This document shows, one piece after another, positions 26,246-60,258 of a stretch of DNA of 64,000 nt; within the stretch, counting starts at the first letter, position 1; every line of letters begins with the position of its first letter. The position numbers and the translations under genes were made by a program. The notes beneath the pieces are model-generated. The model saw nothing but the letters and a program-made list of their open reading frames with translations, was not told where the DNA came from and made no database searches. Origin of the DNA: Methylomagnum ishizawai (GTDB lineage: Bacteria; Pseudomonadota; Gammaproteobacteria; Methylococcales; Methylomonadaceae); NCBI GenBank assembly GCA_945861705.1, contig CAMAVM010000015.1:1-64000 (forward strand), read 5' to 3'.

Positions 26246-27784
26246 TTATTCCAATGACCCAATCCCTGCAACCTCATCGCTTTTCACAGGCTGCTCCAAT
26301 ATCCTAGACAACCATGCATCGGCGGCTTTTTCATTGGTATGTAGGATAAGGTTGGGGAAGAATCCGAATACCAGAACCAGTAAGGCAGGTACGCACAACA
26401 GGAGCAATTCACGGCGGCGCAAATCCTGTAGTTGTTGCACGGTTTGGTGAATGATGGGACCGAAAAACGCCTTGCGCGTGAAATCCAACATGTAGGCTGC
26501 ACCCAGTACGGCAGCGGCGAGCGCAGCAATGCCCAGGCTGGGATGGGCAACTAAGGCACTGATAATTAGCAGCAATTCCGCAGGGAAACCGCTGGTGCCA
26601 GGTACGCCAATACTCGCCAAGACAAACAGAAAATAGAAACACGTCAATTTTGGCATGACTTTAGCTAAACCACCCAAATGCACGGTTTCCGTACTACCCA
26701 AGCGATGTTGGATAAATCCCGCAATTAACATCAGCGAGCTGGCGACTATCGTAAAGTTCAACAATTGGAAGATCGCACCTTGTATGCCTTGCATATTCAA
26801 CGAAGCGATACCGACAATCACCAAGCCGACATGGCTAACGCTAGAGTATGCCAACAAACGCCGCAGGTTGGTCTGGTACAAAGCGATCAATGCGCCATAA
26901 ATAAGGGTAATAGCACCCAGCACGCCCAGTATCCAACTGTATTCGACGGCGGCAGAAGGGGCAAGTGGCATGGTGAAGCGGATAATGCCGTAAGCACCCA
27001 GTTTCAATCCGGTCAATAAGGCCGCGATTTGGGGTGAGCTTTCCATCGTCGCCGTTGGCATCCAGGTATGGAATGGTATTAGCGGCGTTTTGACGGCGAA
27101 TGCCAGCAACAGCAACAAAAACACCGTGCCTTGCAAGTCATCCGGCAAGGGTTTTTCGAGCAAAGTGGGCAAGCTGAAAACCAGTTGTGTACCAACACCG
27201 TCTGCAGGTGCGGCAGCATTAATTGCCAACATCACAATGGCTACCAATAAAGCCGCGCCGCCGAATAACATGAACAAGGTGTATTTGACCGCAGCTATGC
27301 GCCGGTGTGGGTCAACACCCCACAAGCCGATCAAGAAGAAGATAGGCGGCAAAGTAAGCTCCCAAAACAGGAAGAATAGCACCATATCCAAGGCGGTAAA
27401 TACGCCGATGGTAATGCCTTCCAGTGCCAGTAACAAGGCGTAGTGAAATGGCTCCAAGTGCTGCACCGAATTCCATGATGCCACGATAACCATGAGCGTG
27501 ACGAAAGCGGACATGGGCAGGAACAGAACCGAAATTCCGTCAATACCCAACAAATATTCTACATTCAGGCCGGGTATCCAAAGATGGTGTTCAAGCAATT
27601 GAAACTGCCCGTCATCAGGGTTAAACCAGTGAAAGGCCAGCAAAGATAACAATAATTCAATGACCGCAAACGATACGGCGATTGTCCTGGCACGTTCCTT
27701 ATTGCCGAAAAATCCGGTAGCTAATGCACCCAGTAATGGCAGAAAAATTAGCAAAGTAAGTAAGGGGAAATCCGTTGTACTCAC
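26246..27784 (-). CDS. NuoM/ND4-like proton-translocating subunit, last gene of the DAB-type operon
   Basis: This 512-residue membrane protein with about 14 helices has the proton-translocating 'proton_antipo_M' core. The residues essential in complex I are kept: Glu142 in LFWELTLPPIFF, Lys232 in FAVKTPLIPFHTWMP and Lys261 in GLKLGAYGIIRF. It starts with GTG overlapping the preceding stop (27781-27784), so the gene is coupled to the ND4-like gene upstream. No hydrophilic complex I subunit or NuoA/H/J/K homologue is nearby. I infer that it supplies proton flux to the DabA complex. An alternative is a stand-alone proton/cation antiporter. Confidence 0.85.
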   Translation of the reverse strand: MSTTDFPLLTLLIFLPLLGALATGFFGNKERARTIAVSFAVIELLLSLLAFHWFNPDDGQFQLLEHHLWIPGLNVEYLLGIDGISVLFLPMSAFVTLMVIVASWNSVQHLEPFHYALLLALEGITIGVFTALDMVLFFLFWELTLPPIFFLIGLWGVDPHRRIAAVKYTLFMLFGGAALLVAIVMLAINAAAPADGVGTQLVFSLPTLLEKPLPDDLQGTVFLLLLLAFAVKTPLIPFHTWMPTATMESSPQIAALLTGLKLGAYGIIRFTMPLAPSAAVEYSWILGVLGAITLIYGALIALYQTNLRRLLAYSSVSHVGLVIVGIASLNMQGIQGAIFQLLNFTIVASSLMLIAGFIQHRLGSTETVHLGGLAKVMPKLTCFYFLFVLASIGVPGTSGFPAELLLIISALVAHPSLGIAALAAAVLGAAYMLDFTRKAFFGPIIHQTVQQLQDLRRRELLLLCVPALLVLVFGFFPNLILHTNEKAADAWLSRILEQPVKSDEVAGIGSLE

Positions 27785-29358
27785 TCGTTGGCATCCTTGT
27801 CATCAGCGACATCATTATCAACGGTAGGTTCTGCTTCGTATTGCTGGGAACTGTGTACAGGATACTGGCTGACCAACTCGGCAACATCCTTCTCAATCAA
27901 ATTCAGCAAAGGCATCGAATTCAAGCCCGTGCCAATATGCAAGGCGCAGATCACAAAGGCGATTATCCGCTCTTGGACGATGGTCTTCTCATTACTGGCG
28001 TAGTGGATATGGCGTTTGGATGCTGCCAGGAACATACGCTGGAATGCCCACAGCAGGAAACCCGCAGCCAGGACATGCCCAGTCAAGATAGTAACGGCAA
28101 CAGCCCATTCGTGTTCCTCGATAACGCCTTCGAGTAGAAGATGCCCTGCATCAAAACCCAAAGATCCCGGCATAATGACAGTGCTTAAGGTGGTTATCAG
28201 AAATAACATCGCCAAAGCCGTATGGCTATCAAACAGATTGCCCAAGCGGGGGATTATCGCGGTGTTGGTTTGTTCATTAATCAGGCCAATACTGAACAAC
28301 ATACCGACAGAAGCCAAGCCATAAACCAGGGACAACAATAATGTCCCTTCCGTGCCGGAGGTATTGAAACTAAATAGCCCGTAGACGAGCATCCCCGTAT
28401 GGCTAATGGTGGCAAACGCCAATAAGCGGTAGGCATTATTTTGCATGAACGCCAATAATGCGCCGTAAAAAATACTGATAAGGCTTAGTATCAAGATATA
28501 GTTTGCCCATTGCTCCGCCACGCCAGGAACGAGCGGAAAGATAAACCGGATCATGGCATACACGCCTAATTTCAAGCCGATGATGAATACGGTCATGCTG
28601 GTCAATTTGCTTTGTTCAGCCAATAGTGGCAACCAGCCATGAAACGGGAACAAGGGCATACGGATGGCAAAGCCGTAAAACAGCAAGATGAAAATCAAGG
28701 TTTCGTCATGCAGGTAAGCATTGTTGCTTTTTAAGGTCAGCAAGTCGAAGGTCAATTCATGTTCGGAATCGATCAAGCCGAACGCCAGCAATAAAAAGCC
28801 GCACAAAGTCAGGAACAGGCTGGCACCAAAATATTGCATTAACCTAGCAAGCAGATGGCGTTTTTTCTGATCCAAGCCCGACTGCCGGGTGACCAACAAA
28901 ATCGGCAGCAATTCCAATGCGCTCAAAAACCAGAACTGCAATACATTTAAGGCACAAAACGCTGCGATAAGTATTGTTTCATAGCCCAGCACACAGGCAA
29001 TTAAGCGGCTGTCCCCCGCCGTCCGGGTTGCAGAAAGATAGATCAAAACCAACAAAGCTGAACAGGCAATCAGCGGGATAAACAAGATATTCAAGCCATC
29101 GACACCGACACTGTAACTTAGGCCGAATAAGCTGAACTGTTCCGCAAATTGAATGCCCGTCTTGTTGTCATCAAATACAGCCAGCAGATACAAGCATAAT
29201 ACAGTGTTTATCAATGTTGCAACATAACCCAAGCGCATCGACAGCACGGATGAGCTTGAATACAAAACCGCAATCAAGGCGAATAACGGAACGGCCGTCA
29301 TTGCCGTCAACAACGGAAATCCGGCGGATTCTGACCATAAGGACACTTGTGTGAGCAT
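27781..29358 (-). CDS. Divergent NuoM/ND4-like subunit with Arg in place of a key Lys
   Basis: The 525-residue polytopic protein belongs to the same antiporter family as its neighbours but is more diverged. The usual WE pair is replaced by ALELLP (Glu149 kept, Trp lost). The broken-helix Lys of the family is Arg233 in FAIRMPLFPFHGWLP, while the second Lys (Lys263 in GLKLGVYAMIRF) is kept. The C-terminus is an acidic tail (about the last 25 residues). It lies 2 bases after the NuoL-like gene and overlaps the next one, so it is clearly part of the operon. It may form a proton channel of altered function or a structural spacer in the membrane arm. Confidence 0.82.
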   Translation of the reverse strand: MLTQVSLWSESAGFPLLTAMTAVPLFALIAVLYSSSSVLSMRLGYVATLINTVLCLYLLAVFDDNKTGIQFAEQFSLFGLSYSVGVDGLNILFIPLIACSALLVLIYLSATRTAGDSRLIACVLGYETILIAAFCALNVLQFWFLSALELLPILLVTRQSGLDQKKRHLLARLMQYFGASLFLTLCGFLLLAFGLIDSEHELTFDLLTLKSNNAYLHDETLIFILLFYGFAIRMPLFPFHGWLPLLAEQSKLTSMTVFIIGLKLGVYAMIRFIFPLVPGVAEQWANYILILSLISIFYGALLAFMQNNAYRLLAFATISHTGMLVYGLFSFNTSGTEGTLLLSLVYGLASVGMLFSIGLINEQTNTAIIPRLGNLFDSHTALAMLFLITTLSTVIMPGSLGFDAGHLLLEGVIEEHEWAVAVTILTGHVLAAGFLLWAFQRMFLAASKRHIHYASNEKTIVQERIIAFVICALHIGTGLNSMPLLNLIEKDVAELVSQYPVHSSQQYEAEPTVDNDVADDKDANE

Positions 29359-29360
29359 CG

Positions 29361-30935
29361 TTAAAATGCCACCAGCAAGGTAATGAAGACCAGCAAGACC
29401 AGATAACGTGGCCTGAGTACCAGGGTTTCAAATTTGTTGGCGAGATGCCCCATCTTTCGGCCAAAATGCAGCGCATCTTTGCTCACACCTTGCAATACCA
29501 GGCGATCCTCAAACCAGTGAACCAAGCCCGCTATCCGGTTTGTTAACGCACTCACCAGTCCCAATCCTACGACAAATGTCTTGCCGCTATTCCCTGAATC
29601 CGCATCTAACTTTGCGCCCAAAGCCCGTTCTTCCAATTGCGCCAACGAGGATGCCGCGTTAATGGCAGGAGCGGGTATGCCCATAAGCCGATCAACAATA
29701 TTATCGTCAAAATAACTGAGGTCGCGCGCCAAATGCCGGACTGGCTTCACCAATGCCCAGTCGGTGATTTGTTCGACCCAAAACCGCTGCAAGGATGCCA
29801 CAAACAGCCAACGCTTGTTTGCCAACATCGGCGCAACGGGCTTTATCGGGTTGTCCCTGACGTTGAACATCAGCGAGGGAGCGGTCAATACCAGATAGCA
29901 ACGGACAACGGCATGGGCGCAAAGATGCCAACTCGCCAACTGCCAAAATCCCAGACCGCATTCCAGGAACATCAAGCCCAATTGCCCAGAGGTAGCAAAC
30001 ACCAGCGAACTCTTCACGTCGGTCTGGGTTAGGCCAATGAAATAACTGTATAAGGCCGTGGTCGTGCCAGAAAAAATCAGCAAAGCCATAACCAAGGGCG
30101 TATGGCTAATCAACGGTGCTAACGTGATTATCAGGAAAACACCCGCATGTATCATCACTGCCCCATAAAAAGCCGCGCTAGACGGCGTAGGCCCTTCCAT
30201 TGCCCGCGCCAACCAAGGCGAAAACGGCAATTGCGCGGATTTTGCCAAGGCCGCGACCGTAAAACAAAGGGCAATGGCTGTGGCTTCGCCTTTGCTTAAG
30301 TCAGTAGCCGCCGCATTAATGTCAGACCAATTAAGGCTTTCGACCCAGGCGTAACTCAACCCAATCCCTAAAATAAATCCGGCATCGCCTATCCGGTTAG
30401 TCACAAATACCTGGGTCGCATTAGCAACGGCAACCGGACGGTTATAAGCATAAGAAATCAATAGGTAAGAACATAAACCGGCAATTTCCCAACCCACAAA
30501 AGTCCCCAGGGCATTCCTTGATAGAACCAACATCAAGATAGCTGATGAAAACAGGCTCAAGATAAAAAAGAAACGGTGGAATCCGACTTCTCGGTGCATG
30601 TAATTGATTGAAAATCGCGTTATGACCATGAGCAACACAGCAAACAGCGCAGACAGTTTGACGCTGAAACCTGCCGTAATGAAACCAATATCAATCTTCA
30701 AGGTATCGCTGTCCAACCATAAGGCAACGTCAAACGTGCCATTATTTCGTTGCAGCAAATCCGCACCCAATAAGGCCAACGCCAATAAGCTTGACATGCT
30801 GATTGCCCAAGTTGCAGTCAAAGCGGTGAAGGTCTCACTGGCTTCACCTTTGATTGCACCAAACTGATGCCCAATGCCGATAATAGCAGAGGCAAGAAAA
30901 GGCATGAGCGGGATTAAAACGACTAGGGCATCCAT
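29361..30935 (-). CDS. dabB: NuoL/Mrp-like membrane subunit (DabB candidate)
   Basis: This is a 524-residue NuoL/ND5-type antiporter protein. GWEIAGLCSYLLI holds the conserved Glu (residue 150), and AKSAQLPFSPWLARAMEGPTP holds Lys232. The late-helix motif that is HAFFKALLF in NuoL reads HAVVRCYLVL here, so Lys becomes Arg345. A gene of this family directly next to DabA is the hallmark of DAB, in which DabB couples the proton motive force to CO2/bicarbonate accumulation. The C-terminal 150 residues are extended and amphipathic. I start at the ATG at 30935; a TTG five codons earlier is possible. No clear Shine-Dalgarno is visible. Confidence 0.85.
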   Translation of the reverse strand: MDALVVLIPLMPFLASAIIGIGHQFGAIKGEASETFTALTATWAISMSSLLALALLGADLLQRNNGTFDVALWLDSDTLKIDIGFITAGFSVKLSALFAVLLMVITRFSINYMHREVGFHRFFFILSLFSSAILMLVLSRNALGTFVGWEIAGLCSYLLISYAYNRPVAVANATQVFVTNRIGDAGFILGIGLSYAWVESLNWSDINAAATDLSKGEATAIALCFTVAALAKSAQLPFSPWLARAMEGPTPSSAAFYGAVMIHAGVFLIITLAPLISHTPLVMALLIFSGTTTALYSYFIGLTQTDVKSSLVFATSGQLGLMFLECGLGFWQLASWHLCAHAVVRCYLVLTAPSLMFNVRDNPIKPVAPMLANKRWLFVASLQRFWVEQITDWALVKPVRHLARDLSYFDDNIVDRLMGIPAPAINAASSLAQLEERALGAKLDADSGNSGKTFVVGLGLVSALTNRIAGLVHWFEDRLVLQGVSKDALHFGRKMGHLANKFETLVLRPRYLVLLVFITLLVAF

Positions 30936-31013
30936 ATAGTTATAAGGCAAGCGGACGGGGCAAACAAATGAATGTACCCAGTATGACAGCCAGTGTCATT
31001 TTTTTAATTCTCC

Positions 31014-34000
31014 TCACCCTAGCCTCTCCCTTTGGAGAGGGCTACTCGTAACTCCTGCAAAATCAGGTTGTTGAATCAATGCAGGCGGAACAGGTAAAGT
31101 CTGGTTGCGGTAACAGTCGGGTGATTTCTCAAAAACCGGAAGTTCTTTTGCTTCTGCTTGCCAAGGGACAAAGCCTACGCCTCGCTCAAAAATGAAGATT
31201 TCACCTGTGCCAGGGTCTATGGTACTTAAGAGTATCCAACCACCCGCTATTAATTCCTGCAAACTAGGCTGCCTTGCATAAATTTCTTCCAAGATGCTCG
31301 TTTTCGCTTCGACCATAAGCTGCAAACGCATGGCCTCATGGATTTCGATCATCTGGCTGGGTAATCCTGTACGCAAATCACTGGTCGTGCCTTCCATAAC
31401 ACCAAACAGTCCGACAATATTGTGTGGCACTTTTGTCCCACAGCCTAAACGGTCATTATTGACGGTGGAAAAATAATATTCCAGGTTAATCCCTGCGCCC
31501 ACGGGGCCGACGTTGAGCAAGATGCCTTCGACAATTTTGCCGTCCGGGTCTTGCGTCGGATCGTATGAAATTAGGAACACACGGCGGTCAAAAAAAGCAC
31601 CTTGCGTGACCGAACGCCGTCCGATCACCGCAGATGCGTTGGTGCAGTGGCCCAATTCAGGCCGTGCTTGGGAGAAATCAGTTGACCGCTCTACGATATG
31701 CGTCAATGCTTCAGGAAATTCTGGATTACGCGGGGCAGAAGCCAAACGTCGGGAACGCTCATGCGCTGACATATATCGTGCGTGCTTTAATTGCTGTTGT
31801 AATTTTGATAAGGCTTCCTGCTTTTCTTTAGGGACGGTATCGGTATCGTACCAGCTAATTTCTTCGTTACAGGTATTGTGTTCCGCGCCCACGAACCAAG
31901 TCCCGTCAGGAATATGGATATTGCGTTCAGCCAGGCGTTGACGGATTTCAGGTCGGTTAGCCATTGCCGCAAAAACCCGTGCATTAGGCCCACCATGCCG
32001 ACCGCTACATGCGCCGCAATCATAAGCAGCCAGGTGGGGATTGTTTTGGCTCATGGAACCATGCCCCATCAGGACGACCAAGGGGGCAAAACCGTAGGTC
32101 AAGCCTGTGTTTCGGAAAAAACCAGCCACACGATCCGCCTGTTCGCTTTCGGTAAAGCCCAGTTTAGGTTGTTCTGGTGTGGCAACAGTTTCATTATCTG
32201 TTGACGTAAACATCAGTTGGGTTTTGACCGTGCCGGATACCGCTTTAGCCGCCTTTACTATTAACTTGTTCTGGGGCAAGGGGATAAGGGATTTGCTAAG
32301 TAAGCCCAGCATAGTGAACGGTGCCATCACATTGACGATAAGCTGTGAGGATAGCAGGTTTCGCCTTAATCCATGATGTAACAGGTTTGCCAAGCGCTGG
32401 TTCAGTTTCCGTCCGTGCTGATGGCGTTGAAGCGGTTGCTCTTGCCCTGCTTGAGGCAATTCTTGGACTTCATGGGCAGGGGTTACCACTATCGGACATA
32501 AGGGCGTAACTCTCGCATCATCCAAGCCCTTGTAATTCATGGCAACGCCAAAGAATCCGGCAGCCCCCAAAGTTTCGATAGCCGGATTGTGCTCTTCCAG
32601 ATGGCGGCGGAAACTCTCTTCGCGTTCATCCATGCAGAAGACGATTTGTGCTTCGGGCGAATTTTCCCGTTTTGCCCAACGACCTCGGTTATGGTTGGCG
32701 CGTAACGCTTGAAATAAATCTTCCCGATAATGCCGTTCATACGCAACCAGCCAGACTTTACTGTGTTCTTTCAGGTTGAACTCATCCAGACTCTTCAAGA
32801 ATACCAACAAGCCTGATTTGCCTAATTGCTTTATATGCTTTTCATTCAATCCCAAGTGTTGGCAAAGCCGGAACAACCGCCAAGCGGAATTGTTGACGGT
32901 GTTATCAACCGATTTTTCCGCCATCGGGCTGGCTTGCCAGGTGTAGATGAGGTCAGCCAAATATTGCCAGTCAGTGCGGCATTGCCGCTCAGTACCTGCA
33001 CGTAAGGTCAGCAATTCCGCCTGTTGCGTAAGATATTCCGGCAACGCGCCTTGATACAAATGCTGGCGCACCACGAATTCAGACAGATTTTTGCTGAAAT
33101 AAGCCTGTAAGCTGCTGATTTTAGCTTCGCACTTCCAGACTGCCCGGCACACTTGGTTCAGCCAAAGCCTGTCTAAGGTCAGGCGGATCGCCAAATAATC
33201 CGCCAGATCAGGAACCACATTATTTGCCGTATAGTAAAGGGGATGTTGCTGCCGCCAGTTAATCATCCCTGCCCAGCCAGGCAATTCCAAGGCAAGGCGG
33301 CGTAAATAACCTTCCCATCGCGCCTGTGGCAATTCAAGATGTTCCAGTTGCAAGATGATGTTGTCGATGGCATTTTCGGGCAACTCGGCCATGATTTGCG
33401 GCCAATCAGGCAATTCATGCAAGAACGGGTAGGCATCGTATTGGGCTATTTTTCGCCACGCGCCGTACAGTCCTAACTGACTGCATTCTGGCAGTTGCCA
33501 TGCGGCAACACCTTCGTCCAAGGCTGAAGCGCACAGTCGAATCATCTGTGGGCGAATGTTTTCTAAAACATCTTTACCACTCAAAACCAACACAAAACCA
33601 CGCAAGCTGATGCTGTCGCCAATTTCGTTAAACGTGTGTCCCAATGCCTTTCTTGCAGTCTCTTGGGTTTGTTGGTGGGCGGACGCAGAATCGCAGGATT
33701 CATCCAGCCAACACTCGGTTTGTTCCAGTGACAAATCCAGCATATTCTCTGGATGCAAAGCCTCCGGTTTTAATTCCAGTTGCTTGCAAAGGCTTTCCCA
33801 AAGCTGCCTGATTGGATTTTCAGTCGCAATTGTTTTGGCTTTATTCGACCCATATGATTCTTTTCGGACATTATCAGGCACGTCGGCTTGAACAGTGTCC
33901 AGCACAGCCAGTTCTTCAATTTGCCAGTTTAGTTGGCTAAGGCTGATCGTTTGCAGGTCATATAACAAGGCAATCCGATAAATATCTTTGCGGTATATGG

Positions 34001-34334
34001 CCTTATCATCCAGGTTAAACACGATTTCTTCGTGCCTTAATTTTGGATTATGGGCGAAAGCGGCCGTTAAATCCTCATCGTTAATCCGTCCCTGATTATA
34101 AAACTCGCGGTTTTTGGATTCTGGTTGATACGCAGAGATTCCCGTCAGCTTTTCTGCTTCTTCAAGCGCTTCCTCAAACGGCAGGTGTTGGTAACCGTGC
34201 AAGGTGTTGTGGTGGACGAAATCCTGGATCGGCGCTTGGGCCGGCAGGACATGATCCAAATGTGCCAATGCCTTGACGACAAGCTCACGGTCACTTAAGG
34301 CAACACTATCAAATCCTTGGTGCAATCCAGACAT
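31014..34334 (-). CDS. dabA: DabA, probable inorganic-carbon transporter subunit (UPF0753/DUF2309)
   Basis: This 1106-residue protein is the beta-carbonic-anhydrase-like catalytic subunit of DAB systems, thought to hydrate CO2 vectorially at the cytoplasmic face with proton-motive force supplied by DabB. All candidate zinc/active-site residues are present: Cys567 and Asp569 in FCMDEREESFRRHL, His758 in LMGHGSMSQNNPH and Cys773 in YDCGACSGRHGG. The His-Cys spacing of 15 matches the Halothiobacillus DabA pair. It belongs to the long class of about 1,000 residues. The N-terminus also fits (PAQAPIQDFVHHNTLHGYQH). I prefer the ATG at 34334, 5 bases after the upstream stop, over the overlapping TTG at 34343. 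The last residues come from a small palindromic repeat. Confidence 0.93.
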   Translation of the reverse strand: MSGLHQGFDSVALSDRELVVKALAHLDHVLPAQAPIQDFVHHNTLHGYQHLPFEEALEEAEKLTGISAYQPESKNREFYNQGRINDEDLTAAFAHNPKLRHEEIVFNLDDKAIYRKDIYRIALLYDLQTISLSQLNWQIEELAVLDTVQADVPDNVRKESYGSNKAKTIATENPIRQLWESLCKQLELKPEALHPENMLDLSLEQTECWLDESCDSASAHQQTQETARKALGHTFNEIGDSISLRGFVLVLSGKDVLENIRPQMIRLCASALDEGVAAWQLPECSQLGLYGAWRKIAQYDAYPFLHELPDWPQIMAELPENAIDNIILQLEHLELPQARWEGYLRRLALELPGWAGMINWRQQHPLYYTANNVVPDLADYLAIRLTLDRLWLNQVCRAVWKCEAKISSLQAYFSKNLSEFVVRQHLYQGALPEYLTQQAELLTLRAGTERQCRTDWQYLADLIYTWQASPMAEKSVDNTVNNSAWRLFRLCQHLGLNEKHIKQLGKSGLLVFLKSLDEFNLKEHSKVWLVAYERHYREDLFQALRANHNRGRWAKRENSPEAQIVFCMDEREESFRRHLEEHNPAIETLGAAGFFGVAMNYKGLDDARVTPLCPIVVTPAHEVQELPQAGQEQPLQRHQHGRKLNQRLANLLHHGLRRNLLSSQLIVNVMAPFTMLGLLSKSLIPLPQNKLIVKAAKAVSGTVKTQLMFTSTDNETVATPEQPKLGFTESEQADRVAGFFRNTGLTYGFAPLVVLMGHGSMSQNNPHLAAYDCGACSGRHGGPNARVFAAMANRPEIRQRLAERNIHIPDGTWFVGAEHNTCNEEISWYDTDTVPKEKQEALSKLQQQLKHARYMSAHERSRRLASAPRNPEFPEALTHIVERSTDFSQARPELGHCTNASAVIGRRSVTQGAFFDRRVFLISYDPTQDPDGKIVEGILLNVGPVGAGINLEYYFSTVNNDRLGCGTKVPHNIVGLFGVMEGTTSDLRTGLPSQMIEIHEAMRLQLMVEAKTSILEEIYARQPSLQELIAGGWILLSTIDPGTGEIFIFERGVGFVPWQAEAKELPVFEKSPDCYRNQTLPVPPALIQQPDFAGVTSSPLQRERLG
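31023..31040. repeat. Small palindromic repeat inside the 3' end of dabA
   Basis: cctctcc (31023-31029) and ggagagg (31034-31040) form a 7-bp stem with a 4-base loop, flanked by tag/cta. Such 'ctctcccttt ggagag' palindromes occur as dispersed repeats in many proteobacterial genomes. Here it encodes the last residues of DabA (SPLQRERLG), so the C-terminus was probably altered by its insertion. Confidence 0.45.
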
Positions 34335-34339
34335 GGCTA

Positions 34340-35809
34340 TCAATCAGGTGTACCACTTATAAGTTGATTCAACTGTGCAATAGTTGCCGCAGAAAGTTCA
34401 ATCAAGGGTGCAGGTAGCAAGCCGAATAACACTATCCCCGAAACCAGGATACCGGCAGCCAACAACTCATACGCCCGTAAATCCTGGATATGCAGCAGTT
34501 GCGGACGCACCGGCCCCGTAAACAACAAGGTGATGGTGCGTATGGCGTAGGCGGCGCTGATCAGGATACTTATGCTGAACAACACCATCAACCATCCCCA
34601 CTGCTGAAAACCACCGATTAACGTGTGCAGTTCGGCAATAAAGCCGACCGAACCGGGCAAGCCCATTGCAGCGAATAATGTCAGGGCCATGAACACTGCA
34701 AAACGTGGCATAACCTGAACGAGGGAACTGTAATCCTGGATGTTGCGGGTATGGGTGCGTTCGTACAACAAACCAACCATGAGGAACATCGCGCCAGCAA
34801 TCAGCCCATGTGCCGTCATTTGCAAAACTGCACCCTTCAAGCCCGTCTCGTTGAGTGCGGCTATGCCAAGCAAGACGATACCCATGTGGCTGACGGAAGA
34901 ATAAGCCACCATCGCTTTCAGATCTGTTTGCCGCCACGCCAGCAAGCCGCCATAAATCATCCCGAATAAGGCCAGGAACACCAGCAAGGGCTGCAAAACA
35001 TGGGCGGCTTCAGGCAACATCGTCACGATTCTTATCAAACCATAAGCACCCATTTTCAGGAGGATACCGGATAGCAAGATACTGATGGGGCTGGGGGCTT
35101 CGACGTGGGCAAGCGGTAACCAGCCATGCAGGGGGAAAATCGGCATTTTAACGCCGAACCCGACCAAAAACCCAAGGAAAGCCAGCACTTGCAAGTAGCC
35201 AGGCATGTGCTGGGCAGCCAAGTTCATTTTGGTCATCAAAGAATCATGCCCCGGCACATACTGGTAAATGGCGATAAGGCTCAACAGCATAAAAACCGAG
35301 CCGCCCATCGTATACAAGACAAAATTGAGGCTGGCGGCATGTCGCCGCTTGCCGCCCCAGCGGTCAATCAGGATAAACAAAGGGATTAACGTAAGCTCCC
35401 AGAAAATATAGAAAAACCGCCAATCTTGGGACAAAAACACCCCCAACATGCCGAACTCAAGCATAAGGATACAGATATGGTAGCCCTTAATCCCTTTGGT
35501 TAGGCTGAACGAAGCCAATAAGGCCACAGAAGTCAGCAAGGTTGCCAGTAAGACCATAGGTGCAGACAAGCCATCCACCCCTAACGAATATGCACTGCCA
35601 AGTTTGGGGTTAAGGACAAAAAACTCTTTGAATTGCAAGCCAGCATTGTGTTGGTCGTATAAAGCAACCACGAAAAGACTGACTAAAAGGGCAATAAAGG
35701 TGACCGCATTGGCTATCCAACGGATGAGCTGGGTATGATGGCTTGGGATGAAAATAATAATCAACGCCCCAACAGCAGGTGTCCAAAGTAGAATGCTGAG
35801 TATTCCCAT
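34340..35809 (-). CDS. NuoM/ND4-like proton-translocating subunit, first gene of the DAB-type operon
   Basis: The 489-residue polytopic protein has the NuoM-like core. Glu138 (FYIFWELTLIPLFIL), Lys221 (GFGVKMPIFPLHGWLP) and Lys252 (LLKMGAYGLIR) match the essential NuoM positions Glu144, Lys234 and Lys265 of E. coli with a constant small offset. It ends 5 bases before the dabA ATG. It is as canonical as complex I NuoM, which makes it the best candidate for an active proton pathway beside DabB. No Shine-Dalgarno is obvious before the ATG. Confidence 0.87.
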   Translation of the reverse strand: MGILSILLWTPAVGALIIIFIPSHHTQLIRWIANAVTFIALLVSLFVVALYDQHNAGLQFKEFFVLNPKLGSAYSLGVDGLSAPMVLLATLLTSVALLASFSLTKGIKGYHICILMLEFGMLGVFLSQDWRFFYIFWELTLIPLFILIDRWGGKRRHAASLNFVLYTMGGSVFMLLSLIAIYQYVPGHDSLMTKMNLAAQHMPGYLQVLAFLGFLVGFGVKMPIFPLHGWLPLAHVEAPSPISILLSGILLKMGAYGLIRIVTMLPEAAHVLQPLLVFLALFGMIYGGLLAWRQTDLKAMVAYSSVSHMGIVLLGIAALNETGLKGAVLQMTAHGLIAGAMFLMVGLLYERTHTRNIQDYSSLVQVMPRFAVFMALTLFAAMGLPGSVGFIAELHTLIGGFQQWGWLMVLFSISILISAAYAIRTITLLFTGPVRPQLLHIQDLRAYELLAAGILVSGIVLFGLLPAPLIELSAATIAQLNQLISGTPD

Positions 35810-36098: not shown

Positions 36099-37706
36099 TT
36101 AGTGGGAAATAGGGGCGGTATCTTCTATTCCAACCAATTCTTGATGTTTTTTTATTTTTTCCTTGCCATATAAATCAATGGCTTCAACGGTAATATTACT
36201 GTCTGGCGACGAAGCAATAAAATCATCAATGGTTTCAAGTATGTCGTAATCGATAAATTGGGCTTTTTGGGCATCAATTGTGACTGTGCTATTTTCTTCA
36301 ACCAACAAAATGAATTTTCTAAGTAGTGCCTTATTGAGGAAAGAAACGTCTTTATTAAGCGTTATCAGGTAATGATTACCCGTTTTGGTTTGGGTTTTAG
36401 TCAACGTAATAGCCGCGTGGTAGTTCGCCCTTATTACAAAGAATAAACCGATAACCATGCCAATCGCCATACCTTTGAGCAAATCCGTCGCCAATATTGC
36501 GCCAACGGTAATAACGAACGGCAACAGTTGACTCATACCCTTATGGTAAAATTCCACAAACATCGAAGGTTTAGCCAACTTATAACCTGTGTGCAATAAA
36601 ATTGCCGCCAAACAAGCCAACGGAATGGCGTTAAGATGGCGTGAGAAAAATAGGACGCTGATTAGCAGAAAAATGCCATGTACAAAACAGGACAAGCTGG
36701 TTTTCCCGCCCGCGTTGATGTTTGCAGAACTACGGACAATAACCGCCGTCATAGGTAAACCGCCAAGTAACCCGCTGATAATATTGCCCATGCCTTGTGC
36801 CTTAAGCTCACGGTTGGTCGGTGTCAAGCGTTTTAACGGATCGAGCTTATCGGTGGCTTCCAGGCTTAATAAGGTTTCCAGGCTGGCGATAATTGCGATA
36901 GTGAACGCGACAACATAGACTTGGGGATTGCTTAAATGGCTGAAGTCTGGAAACACTAAATGGTTAATAAAATCAGCAGGATGCGCTGATACCGGTAAGT
37001 TAACAAGATGTTCAGGATTAACCTGCCAATCGGGCGCAAATCTAGCCGCAAGTAAATTGAAACTGACTCCCCACACAACAGTGAGCAAAGGCCCAGGTAT
37101 TAGTTTCAATAACACTTGCTTCTTAAACCAGGGCAATTCCCAAACGATTAAGATCAGCAAACCGATAACGCTAATAACAACCGCCCCAGGCGAAATGGCA
37201 TGTAAGGAATCAAACAGTTCAAAAAAGCTCGATTCCGCCGTTTCCGCCATATAATCTTCATCGCCCTCAAAACTGGCATCATAACCAACCGCATGTGGAA
37301 TCTGTTTGATGATGAGAATCAAACCAATAGCCGCCAACATGCCTTTAATGACGGCAGAAGGAAAAAAAGCACCAATAATTCCAGCCTTAAAAAAACCCAA
37401 TATCAGTTGCAAAACACCCGCTAAAACGCAAGCCACTAGAAAAGCCGGAAGGCTACCTAGCGTTTGTATGGCATTGAAAACTATTACAGTAAGCCCAGCG
37501 GCAGGGCCCGAAACGCTCAGTTGCGACCCACTAAGCCAAGCCACCACCAAGCCACCCACTAAACCCGCAATCAAACCAGAGAATAAAGGTGCTCCCGATG
37601 CCAGGGCAATGCCCAAACACAGCGGCAAAGCGACCAAGAATACGACAATTCCAGCCGGGACATCTTCTTTAAGATGGCGAAAATAATAGCGTGCTTGATG
37701 TATCAT
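36099..37706 (-). CDS. SulP-family inorganic anion transporter, probable bicarbonate uptake
   Basis: The 535-residue protein has a UraA-fold membrane domain (about residues 1-410, 12-14 helices) and a C-terminal STAS domain (about 425-520). The start DVPAGIVVFLVALPLCLGIA and SGSQLSVSGPAAGL belong to the SulP branch often found next to carbonic anhydrases in autotrophs. Position directly upstream of a DAB operon supports HCO3- as substrate; sulfate cannot be excluded by sequence. I start at the ATG at 37706, preceded by a strong aaaggag. A longer in-frame ATG at 37736 lies within the palindrome upstream. Confidence 0.88.
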   Translation of the reverse strand: MIHQARYYFRHLKEDVPAGIVVFLVALPLCLGIALASGAPLFSGLIAGLVGGLVVAWLSGSQLSVSGPAAGLTVIVFNAIQTLGSLPAFLVACVLAGVLQLILGFFKAGIIGAFFPSAVIKGMLAAIGLILIIKQIPHAVGYDASFEGDEDYMAETAESSFFELFDSLHAISPGAVVISVIGLLILIVWELPWFKKQVLLKLIPGPLLTVVWGVSFNLLAARFAPDWQVNPEHLVNLPVSAHPADFINHLVFPDFSHLSNPQVYVVAFTIAIIASLETLLSLEATDKLDPLKRLTPTNRELKAQGMGNIISGLLGGLPMTAVIVRSSANINAGGKTSLSCFVHGIFLLISVLFFSRHLNAIPLACLAAILLHTGYKLAKPSMFVEFYHKGMSQLLPFVITVGAILATDLLKGMAIGMVIGLFFVIRANYHAAITLTKTQTKTGNHYLITLNKDVSFLNKALLRKFILLVEENSTVTIDAQKAQFIDYDILETIDDFIASSPDSNITVEAIDLYGKEKIKKHQELVGIEDTAPISH

Positions 37707-37722
37707 GTTTAGCTCCTTTGAA

Positions 37723-37740
37723 TTAAGTGTAAGCACTTAA
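37723..37740. promoter_or_regulatory. Palindromic operator-like site just upstream of the SulP gene
   Basis: ttaagtg (37723-37729) and cacttaa (37734-37740) are perfect inverted repeats with a 4-base spacer, ending 17 bases before the start codon. The position next to the ribosome-binding site fits a repressor operator, or an mRNA hairpin. Confidence 0.45.
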
Positions 37741-57984: not shown

Positions 57985-58249
57985 TTAGTCTAGCAACGAA
58001 TCAAGTTCTTGCTGGGAATCCCCTTAATTTAATGATTGATAGTCTTAAGAAAATGCTAAACAAGTTGATTTCGCTTATGATTCGATTTGTTTTCCCTGAA
58101 TTTACCGAAGGGCTTTTTCAAACCGCTTAAAAAACAGTTAATTCAGGACGTTAGTCAAATGATTACACAAAAATATCTGCATAATAATTCCACTTAAACT
58201 CAAATTCATCTATAGTTGAACCTATCAGCGATTGACTTTGTGGCATCTA

Positions 58250-60258
58250 ATGAAGCTCTACATACAAGTAAGATTGACCTTAAGTATTGGCATTATGCTT
58301 TTGCAACCTTTAGCCTTTGCTGAAGATGACCTAGCAACCATAAAACCTATAACGGACGACAGTACCGCACAGCTCTTTGCAGACATTCCCTCGGTTTACA
58401 GTGCCTCTAAGTATGAGCAAAAAGTCACTAAAGCCCCCGCATCCATCAGCATAGTGACGGGTGATGAAATTAAAAAATATGGCTACCGTACTTTCGGTCA
58501 AATTCTTAATAGCCTAAGAGGATTTTATAATACCAGCGACCGCACTTATGGGTATGCTGGGGCGCGTGGTTTCGGTTTGCCATCAGACTACAACAGCCGC
58601 TTGTTGCTACTGATAGACGGTCATCGCTTTAATGACAGTATGTTTGATGCTTTTGATACTTCTGAAGGCTTTCCGGTTGACCTAGACATTATTGAGCGAA
58701 TAGAAGTGGTGCGTGGTCCCAGCTCCTCACTATATGGCACTAGCGCGGTATTCGGAGTAATTAATATCATTACCAAACGTGGACGTGACCAACACGGTGC
58801 CAATATCAAATACTCTTATGGCAGTAATGACACCCATAAAACCAGTATGAGTGTTGGCAACCGCTTCAAAAATGGCCTGGAAGCCTTTGTGACCGGCACT
58901 TGGTATGACAGCCAAGGTTATGACAAATTATTCTTCAAGGAATTTGACAGCCCTGCCACGAATAACGGCCTGAGCATTGGCAATGATGGCGAACGTGACC
59001 GTAAATTAATGCTGAAAGCCGCTTATGGCGATTTTTCGATGTTAACAGGAACAAAGATGTCCCTACCGCTCAATTAGGTGGTCTGTTTAATAACCCAAAC
59101 CTAAACGCACATGATCAAGCCACTTTTTTTGAATTAAAATACGACCATACCTTTGAAAACCAACTCAATTTACAATCACGAGTTTCTTATAATAACTACC
59201 GATTTAAGGGGCAATTGCCCCTAGATCCTTCAATTTTAGGGTCAACAATTAATACATCACTAGTCAATAGCGATTGGTGGCGTTTTGAACTGGAAGCTAG
59301 GAAGCTGATGTGGAATGACCACCACATCACCGTAGGCGGACAATATCAAGATAATTTCCATCAATTCCAGACTTTTTTTAATCCTAATATCACATTATTG
59401 AATTCGGATGAAAAAACCTATCAATGGGCGCTATTTGTCCAAGATGATTATGCCATTACTGACGAACTGACCCTGAACGCTGGGGTGCGCTTTGATTATT
59501 ACAGTATTTTTGGCAATACCATCAACCCGCGCGCTGGTTTAATCTACAATCCGTGGCAAAGTACGACCTTCAAGCTGCTGTATGGTCAGGCTTTCAGAGC
59601 ACCTAATCAAGCTGAACTACATAATACCGTTGGTAGTATTACCCCCAACCCAAGCTTACAACCTGAAAAACTGGATACCCTAGAATTTATTGTTGAGCAT
59701 TATTTTACCCAACAGCTACGCGGCGAATTCAACGTGTTTCATACAAAGATCGCTGATAATATCAGTTCAGCTCTGAAAGGTACTCAATCGCAGTATCAAA
59801 ACATTGGTGATGTCGAATCCATAGGCGTTGAAACCCAAATCGAGAATACTTGGGGGGACGGTTTTCAGGGGCGACTCAGTTATTCTTGGCAAGAAACCAC
59901 CAATCAAAAAACTGGCGAACGCTTGACCAACTCGCCTGAACACATGATTAAGGTCAATCTTATAGCCCCGCTATGGCAAGACAAGGTGTTTGTGGGTTTT
60001 GAAACGCAATTTATGAGCAGCCGAAAAACCCCACCAAAACCAGTCAACGGAAATACTACAGGGGGCAGAGTAGGTGATAATGTCATCAGCAATCTCACCG
60101 TTTACACCCAAAACTGGGTTAAAGGGCTAGAGTTATCGGCGGGTGCTTACAATCTCTTCGACGAACGTTATTTTGATCCCGCTTCAGCCGATCACGTCCA
60201 AAATGCCATACAACAGGACGGCTTAACCTTCAGAGTTAAGGGAAGCATGGATTTTTAA
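58250..60258 (+). pseudogene. TonB-dependent outer-membrane receptor with a frameshift
   Basis: Two frames make one receptor of about 670 residues. The first has a signal peptide (QPLAFA), then the plug domain with SISIVTGDEIKKYGYRT, LLLLIDGHRFND and IERIEVVRGPSSSLYGTSAVFGVINIITK, and runs to LPLN. The second frame reads VNRNKDVPTAQLGG from about 59041 and continues through the beta-barrel to the C-terminal Phe (VKGSMDF). A one-base change in the five-T run 59032-59036 would join them. It could be a real mutation or a sequencing error. Start at the ATG at 58250. The gene is followed by an ABC-type binding protein, a common pairing in signal-sensing systems. Confidence 0.75.

What the first reader, a model, noticed from the sequence alone, without database searches (positions are those of the whole stretch)
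26246..35809. DAB-type carbon-uptake operon with four antiporter-like subunits instead of one
In the characterised DAB systems, DabA works with one NuoL-like DabB. Here DabA (candidate ligands Cys567, Asp569, His758, Cys773 intact) is flanked in one tight operon by four distinct antiporter-like proteins: one NuoM-like before it, one NuoL-like, and two more NuoM/ND4-like after it, with overlaps of 4 bases or gaps of 2-63 bases. Complex I has three such subunits, Mrp two, and none of their other subunits are present. A membrane arm this long beside a CA-like subunit may change the proton to carbon stoichiometry, or make a redox-independent multi-pump complex. I have not seen this five-gene layout in named DAB descriptions, but cannot exclude that it is known.
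Basis: partly seen in the sequence, partly recalled or inferred. Interest (0 to 1): 0.82.

Follow-up and report, generated by a model that had tools for sequence, protein, structure and literature searches.

The report
Carbon-uptake operon with four antiporter-like subunits
A methane-eating bacterium carries a CO2-capturing enzyme gene locked together with four ion-pump-like membrane genes instead of the usual one; the same five-gene set recurs in at least 16 families of related bacteria and appears to be a variant CO2-to-bicarbonate machine whose proton path has moved away from the place known in the two-gene version.

Summary
Observation confirmed. In a Methyloglobulus-like methanotroph, minus-strand 35809-26246 encodes A (NuoM-like), long DabA, B (DabB/NuoL-like), C and D (NuoM-like). 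It is not a one-off. The order A-DabA-B-C-D recurs in Methylococcales, in Nitrosospira, Nitrosovibrio and Nitrotoga, and outside the class. All 24 class genomes with C also have DabA, spread over 16 families. Where the genes have come apart, in up to four places, all five are still kept. B and C are fused in one family.

The subunits are not four equal pumps. A and D keep the complete NuoM proton-path residues. C has lost the TM5 and TM12 carboxylates. B is a DabB truncated after TM11, without the periplasmic half-channel. DabA keeps its zinc ligands, but the finger glutamate that is essential in DAB2 is replaced. Most likely this is one proton-motive-force-driven CO2-hydrating complex whose proton path runs through the extra subunits. 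The fixed five-gene set, truncated B, replaced finger glutamate, fusion and co-decay I found in no paper held here. No physical complex or activity was shown.

The parts
34340..35809 (-). Subunit A: NuoM-like antiporter-like protein, 489 aa, with complete NuoM proton-path residues (E138, K221, K252, E393)
   Evidence: ORF; PF00361 1.5e-72; NCBIfam NuoM; residues conserved in 61-62 of 62 orthologs and 29 of 29 of a wider set
31014..34343 (-). Long DabA (1109 aa from TTG 34343; 1106 aa from ATG 34334): beta-carbonic-anhydrase-like subunit with zinc ligands C570, D572, H761, C776; hydrophobic finger about 660-690 carries N671 where DAB2 has the essential Glu444
   Evidence: PF10070 4e-253; ligands 58 of 58; finger comparison; AF2 model matched to beta-CAs, best CsoSCA Z 7.3
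29361..30950 (-). Subunit B: DabB ortholog, NuoL-like TM1-11, TM12-15 missing, low-confidence helical tail and one C-terminal TM (likely start M6)
   Evidence: PF00361+PF00662; hydropathy; AF2 model; Foldseek NuoL over about 360 residues, rmsd about 2; tree with DabBs
27781..29358 (-). Subunit C: divergent NuoM-like protein, TM5 Glu lost, TM7 Lys replaced by R233, TM8 K263 kept, TM12 Glu lost with adjacent invariant H406
   Evidence: PF00361 7.2e-35; residues; sister of D
26246..27784 (-). Subunit D: NuoM-like protein, 512 aa, with complete NuoM proton-path residues (E142, K232, K261, E403)
   Evidence: PF00361 1.6e-58; residues 84-86 of 86, 27-28 of 28
36099..37736 (-). SulP-family anion permease 289 bases upstream, same strand; possibly a bicarbonate carrier, membership of the system uncertain; a SulP gene lies on 14 of 46 loci with the complete operon
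   Evidence: PF00916 6.8e-63; BicA model below cut-off; neighbourhood count

Best explanation
The operon encodes one five-subunit membrane complex of the DAB kind. Shown here: five co-conserved gene families; a zinc-site DabA of beta-CA fold; a truncated DabB (B); two NuoM-like subunits with full proton-path residues (A and D); and one altered NuoM-like subunit (C). Inferred mechanism: DabA docks on B as DabA2 docks on DabB2 and hydrates CO2 to bicarbonate in one direction. Protons flow inward down the proton-motive force. B offers only a cytoplasmic half-channel, and the DabA finger has lost its glutamate, so the periplasmic half of the path, and probably further protons per turnover, is supplied by C, D and A in a complex-I-like side-by-side membrane arm. 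In this methanotroph no RuBisCO large subunit was found, so the bicarbonate would serve carboxylases of central metabolism rather than a Calvin-cycle CCM. The number of protons per CO2, the subunit order in the arm beyond B next to C, and the direction are inferred, not shown.
For: Complete order in 46 of 80 C-selected loci; 18 more are cut by contig ends. Same order in genomes outside the order and outside the class. All 24 class genomes with C also have DabA, against 96 of 370 overall (chance 8e-16 ignoring relatedness). All 29 relatives with C have a long-type DabA. Dispersed genomes keep all five; G414 has them in four places. B-C fusion in three genomes of one family. A-B-C-D together with DabA elsewhere in G124. 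Pump residues in A and D. Zinc ligands conserved. B tail has mostly 1 hydrophobic segment, against 3-6 in NuoL and nearly all other DabBs. Finger Glu in 16 of 17 sampled one-antiporter DabAs outside the Methylococcales short type, but in none of the 58 of this type. Zn-site loss and pump-residue loss tend to coincide. DabA fold comparison gives beta-CA. DAB2 mechanism from PMC13144422.
Against: Co-occurrence counts are not corrected for relatedness. One lineage (L225) keeps the zinc ligands while losing pump residues. Short DabAs of Methylococcales also lack the finger Glu (Gln in 14 of 16) although their DabB keeps its late TMs, so loss of the finger Glu alone does not require extra subunits; 28 of 58 DabAs of this type keep an Asp there. 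The C-terminal tail of B is low-confidence in the model.
Confidence: 0.6

Rival explanations
1. Only DabA and B form the carbon-uptake enzyme, as in DAB2. A, C and D are a separate antiporter that is merely co-transcribed.
For: Two-gene DABs work with one DabB (PMC13144422). B is phylogenetically a DabB.
Against: The splits cut between DabA and B (A-DabA apart from B-C-D in G028, G032, G030), not between DabA-B and the rest. B is fused to C in one family. B lacks TM12-15. C never occurs without DabA in 24 of 24 class genomes.
Confidence: 0.15
2. It is an ion-coupled bicarbonate transporter or cation/proton antiporter (Mrp- or MpsAB-like, possibly sodium-coupled) in which DabA is regulatory or supplies substrate, rather than a proton-driven CO2 hydratase.
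For: The subunits are homologous to Mrp A/D. MpsAB has been argued to use sodium (cited in PMC13144422). A few lineages keep A-D with a zinc-dead or half-length DabA.
Against: Zinc ligands invariant in 58 of 58 full-length long DabAs of the first set and in nearly all of the wide set. In the zinc-dead lineages pump residues decay too. No Mrp B/C/E/F/G partner beside the operon.
Confidence: 0.15
3. Reverse mode: an exergonic reaction at DabA drives outward ion pumping through several subunits (the 2017 COGNAT proposal).
For: Number of membrane subunits parallels complex I (PMC5700660).
Against: CO2 hydration at cytoplasmic pH yields too little free energy to export even one proton against a normal proton-motive force (own estimate, no tool). 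DIC uptake by the homologous DAB2 is sensitive to uncoupling (PMC13144422).
Confidence: 0.05

Closest known systems
DAB2 of Halothiobacillus neapolitanus (DabA2-DabB2, PDB 9rd0/9rd8/9rd9; PMC13144422)
   Same: Homologous DabA (phmmer 2.5e-75) with the same Cys-Asp-His-Cys ligands; homologous NuoL-like DabB
   Different: One membrane subunit against four; DabB2 has 15 TMs and B lacks TM12-15; DabA2 finger Glu444 is essential, here N671; DabB2 has Ile151 where B keeps Glu155 (as in complex I)
One-antiporter DABs with about 1050-aa DabA (L177-L184, L191), and DAB1 of H. neapolitanus (Hneap_0907-0909, from PMC13144422)
   Same: Long DabA, NuoL-like partner
   Different: Single antiporter gene about 560 aa with 4 late TMs; finger Glu conserved. 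That these loci are DAB1 orthologs was not tested
YbcC/COG3002 'clade C' operons of the COGNAT paper (PMC5700660, 2017)
   Same: ybcC upstream of nuoL with extra COG1008 (NuoM) and COG0659 (SulP) genes; multi-ion idea proposed there
   Different: The main text gives no fixed five-gene set, residue analysis, truncation, fusion or CO2 function; its supplementary figure was not readable here
Respiratory complex I membrane arm (NuoL/M/N) and cyanobacterial CO2-hydrating NDH-1
   Same: Homologous antiporter-like subunits; CO2 hydration coupled to a proton-translocating arm in cyanobacterial NDH-1 (general knowledge)
   Different: No redox subunits beside the operon; CA-like subunit is DabA, not CupA/CupB; B belongs with DabBs, not NuoL

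Membership tests
DAB / DAC (DabA-DabB CO2-accumulating complexes) | DabA (PF10070) with Cys-Asp-His-Cys zinc ligands in a beta-CA-like fold | tested here: met
   PF10070 4e-253; ligands invariant; best structural matches are beta-CAs, Z 7.3 for CsoSCA
DAB / DAC (DabA-DabB CO2-accumulating complexes) | DabB: a PF00361 NuoL-like membrane protein, orthologous to DabBs | tested here: met
   B groups with DabBs of two-gene DABs, support 0.999
DAB / DAC (DabA-DabB CO2-accumulating complexes) | Proton-driven CO2 uptake, rescue of carbonic-anhydrase-deficient E. coli | not testable with these tools
   needs experiment
DAB2-type architecture in particular | Finger glutamate (Glu444) in DabA | tested here: not met
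   N671 in window; D 28, N 14, other 16 of 58; no acidic residue in the finger in 26 of 33 wide-set DabAs; Glu in most one-antiporter types
DAB2-type architecture in particular | 15-TM DabB with TM12-13 forming the periplasmic half-channel | tested here: not met
   one hydrophobic segment after TM11 in the window B and nearly all B orthologs, at most one in 28 of 29 of the wide set
Respiratory complex I | Redox arm and NuoH/J/K/A next to NuoL/M/N | tested here: not met
   none among neighbouring genes; genome-wide only PF00361 was searched: four hits, all in this operon
Mrp antiporter | MrpB, C, E, F, G with MrpA and MrpD | tested here: not met
   no such genes beside the operon; not searched elsewhere in the genome

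The most novel reading that the evidence does not exclude
A carbonic-anhydrase counterpart of the complex I membrane arm: a widespread five-subunit DAB in which the proton path has moved from DabB and the DabA finger into separate NuoM-like subunits, so that several protons are spent per CO2 and bicarbonate can be accumulated against a steeper gradient.
Probability: 0.35. Interest if true: 0.82.

Novelty: new variant of a known kind. Interest (0 to 1): 0.6.

Why it matters
It is a natural test of how complex-I-type subunits couple at a distance: a non-redox enzyme that lengthened its membrane arm, with two subunits intact, one altered and one truncated. It also suggests that the finger-glutamate route proposed for DAB2 is not universal. 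The system is present in methanotrophs and nitrifiers, which matter for methane and nitrogen cycling, and could be a stronger bicarbonate accumulator for engineering.

Tried and rejected
Tree with iqtree2 failed on a thread setting; FastTree was used. The structure library ends April 2026, and DabB2 was not among the rows listed for B. Assembly artefact rejected: same order in single-contig genomes and many independent assemblies. Stand-in for a missing complex I rejected as the general role: several genomes have both this system and NuoL/M/N. Literature searches for DabA in methanotrophs or nitrifiers gave nothing relevant. Promoter/terminator scan was at chance level. Rfam and tRNA scans of the window were empty.

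Full report
WHAT IS THERE. On the minus strand, 35809 to 26246 encodes A (NuoM-like), DabA, B (NuoL-like), C and D (NuoM-like), with junctions of -4, 63, 2 and -4 bases. Domain searches agree. SulP and PAP2 lie upstream; fructosamine kinase and NagZ lie downstream. The genome (2.45 Mb, 92% complete) has no other Proton_antipo_M gene and no RuBisCO large subunit match, but has beta-carbonic anhydrase matches. The best-matching named relatives are Methyloglobulus species, methanotrophs of the Methylococcales.

HOW WIDESPREAD. Among 61 relatives, 34 have DabA. Long DabAs of this type carry the same neighbours in the same order, except where the operon is split or cut by a contig end. A scan of named genomes with the subunit C profile gave 524 relatives; of the best 80 loci, 46 have the complete order A-DabA-B-C-D (one more has B broken in two ORFs), 18 are cut by contig ends, 14 have B-C-D without DabA nearby and one has C alone. 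Named bearers include Methylobacter, Methylomonas, Methylovulum, Crenothrix, Nitrosospira sp. NpAV, Nitrosovibrio tenuis and Candidatus Nitrotoga. In 370 genomes of the class, 96 have DabA and 24 have C (440 bits or more), in 16 families; every one of the 24 has DabA. In 397 genomes of the phylum, 26 have C. Of 14 such loci fetched, 13 of them from outside the class, 11 show the complete order, two are cut by contig ends and one has A-D-B-C. Ordinary one-antiporter DABs (about 1050-aa DabA with a 559-aa NuoL-like partner) are also common.

WHY THE FIVE BELONG TOGETHER. First, co-retention when dispersed: in G028, G032 and G030, A-DabA and B-C-D lie apart; in G348 there are three places and in G414 four, with all five kept; in G124, A-B-C-D is together and DabA elsewhere. 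Of 20 further genomes with split, cut or odd loci, all had a long-DabA match: 14 full length, two cut at contig ends and four shortened. Second, B and C are one polypeptide of about 1045 aa in three genomes of one family, which argues for physical contact. Third, A, B, C and D are each one clade; C and D are sisters (0.99), and B falls among DabBs of two-gene DABs (0.999), not with complex I NuoL. Two other multi-antiporter DABs (L062, L186) have NuoL/NuoM-like partners on separate branches, suggesting independent recruitment.

WHAT EACH SUBUNIT CAN DO. Aligned with E. coli NuoL/M/N, A and D keep all four NuoM proton-path residues (TM5 Glu, TM7 Lys, TM8 Lys, TM12 Glu) almost without exception, and so do 29 and 28 orthologs of a wider set. 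C has lost the TM5 Glu and the TM12 Glu, has Arg for the TM7 Lys, and keeps the TM8 Lys and an invariant His beside the TM12 site. B keeps the TM5 Glu, TM7 Lys and the Arg/Asp pair, but its sequence after TM11 has one hydrophobic segment against three to six in NuoL and nearly all other DabBs (L185 is an exception that may be an ORF or alignment problem). The AF2 model of B is confident for TM1-11 and poor afterwards, and matches NuoL over about 360 residues at about 2 A. The AF2 model of DabA (mean pLDDT 76.5) has CsoSCA and other beta-carbonic anhydrases as its best structural matches; Z of 7.3 alone is modest, but the match agrees with the published DAB2 structure.

COMPARISON WITH DAB2. 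In DAB2 the DabA finger inserts into DabB2 and its Glu444 is essential; DabB2 TM12-13 and the finger form the probable periplasmic half-channel (PMC13144422). Glu is present in 16 of 17 sampled one-antiporter DabAs outside the Methylococcales short type (L185 has Leu). In 58 five-gene DabAs that position is Asp (28), Asn (14) or another residue (16), never Glu; in the window it is Asn. In the wide set 26 of 33 fingers have no acidic residue at all. Together with the truncation of B this implies that the outer half of the proton path is elsewhere, most simply in C and its neighbours. The short DabAs of Methylococcales have Gln there although their DabB is full length, so this step is inference.

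A NATURAL EXPERIMENT. In a few lineages (L224; L226, matching Methylovulum miyakonense; L147) DabA has lost its zinc ligands or its whole catalytic half, and in the same genomes pump residues of A, B or D have changed to Gln, Leu, Thr and the like. Across 74 loci, zinc site and pump residues are both intact in 67 (Fisher p=0.001, relatedness not corrected). Of the exceptions, L058 and L155 are D genes broken in two ORFs, L109 has Arg at the His position in a shortened DabA, and L225 is a true exception with pump residues lost but zinc ligands kept. This fits functional coupling between the genes. What the degraded versions still do is unknown.

PRIOR ART. COGNAT (Biol Direct 2017, PMC5700660) reported that ybcC (dabA) upstream of nuoL is often accompanied by NuoM and SulP genes, and proposed that subunit number sets ion number. 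So the general layout and the stoichiometry idea are not new. I found no description of the fixed five-gene system as such in the papers held; subscription papers and supplements were not readable, so this is not proof of absence.

VERDICT. A widespread, conserved DAB variant with a probable five-subunit complex; new variant of a known kind. Complex formation, proton number and direction need experiment.

Noticed in passing
L224:5128-8157, L226:5474-7576, L147:5767-7356: Zinc-dead or half-length DabA with an open reading frame in genomes that keep A-D genes, whose proton residues are also partly eroded; mostly Methylovulum-like methanotrophs.
   Followed up: partly
L153:8799 (1045 aa), L152:5353, L154:5970: Natural B-C fusion protein in three genomes of one family; D lies elsewhere in these genomes.
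   Followed up: partly
L062:7802-16278 and L186:2374-14300: Other DABs with two or three NuoM/NuoL-like neighbours on different branches of the antiporter tree: apparent independent recruitment.
   Followed up: partly
L039:8529-11114 and 13 similar short DabAs: Short DabAs of Methylococcales have Gln where DAB2 has the essential finger Glu444 (E444Q was inactive in DAB2).
   Followed up: no
L144:9001-10557: Methylovulum psychrotolerans has subunit C alone on a 19 kb stretch.
   Followed up: no
window 58232-59077 and 59215-60258: A TonB-dependent receptor appears split in two ORFs (plug and barrel): a frameshift, decay or assembly error.
   Followed up: no
whole genome G000: No PF00361 gene outside the operon, so complex I seems absent; G003, G004, G020 and G032 also show only four such genes.
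   Followed up: partly
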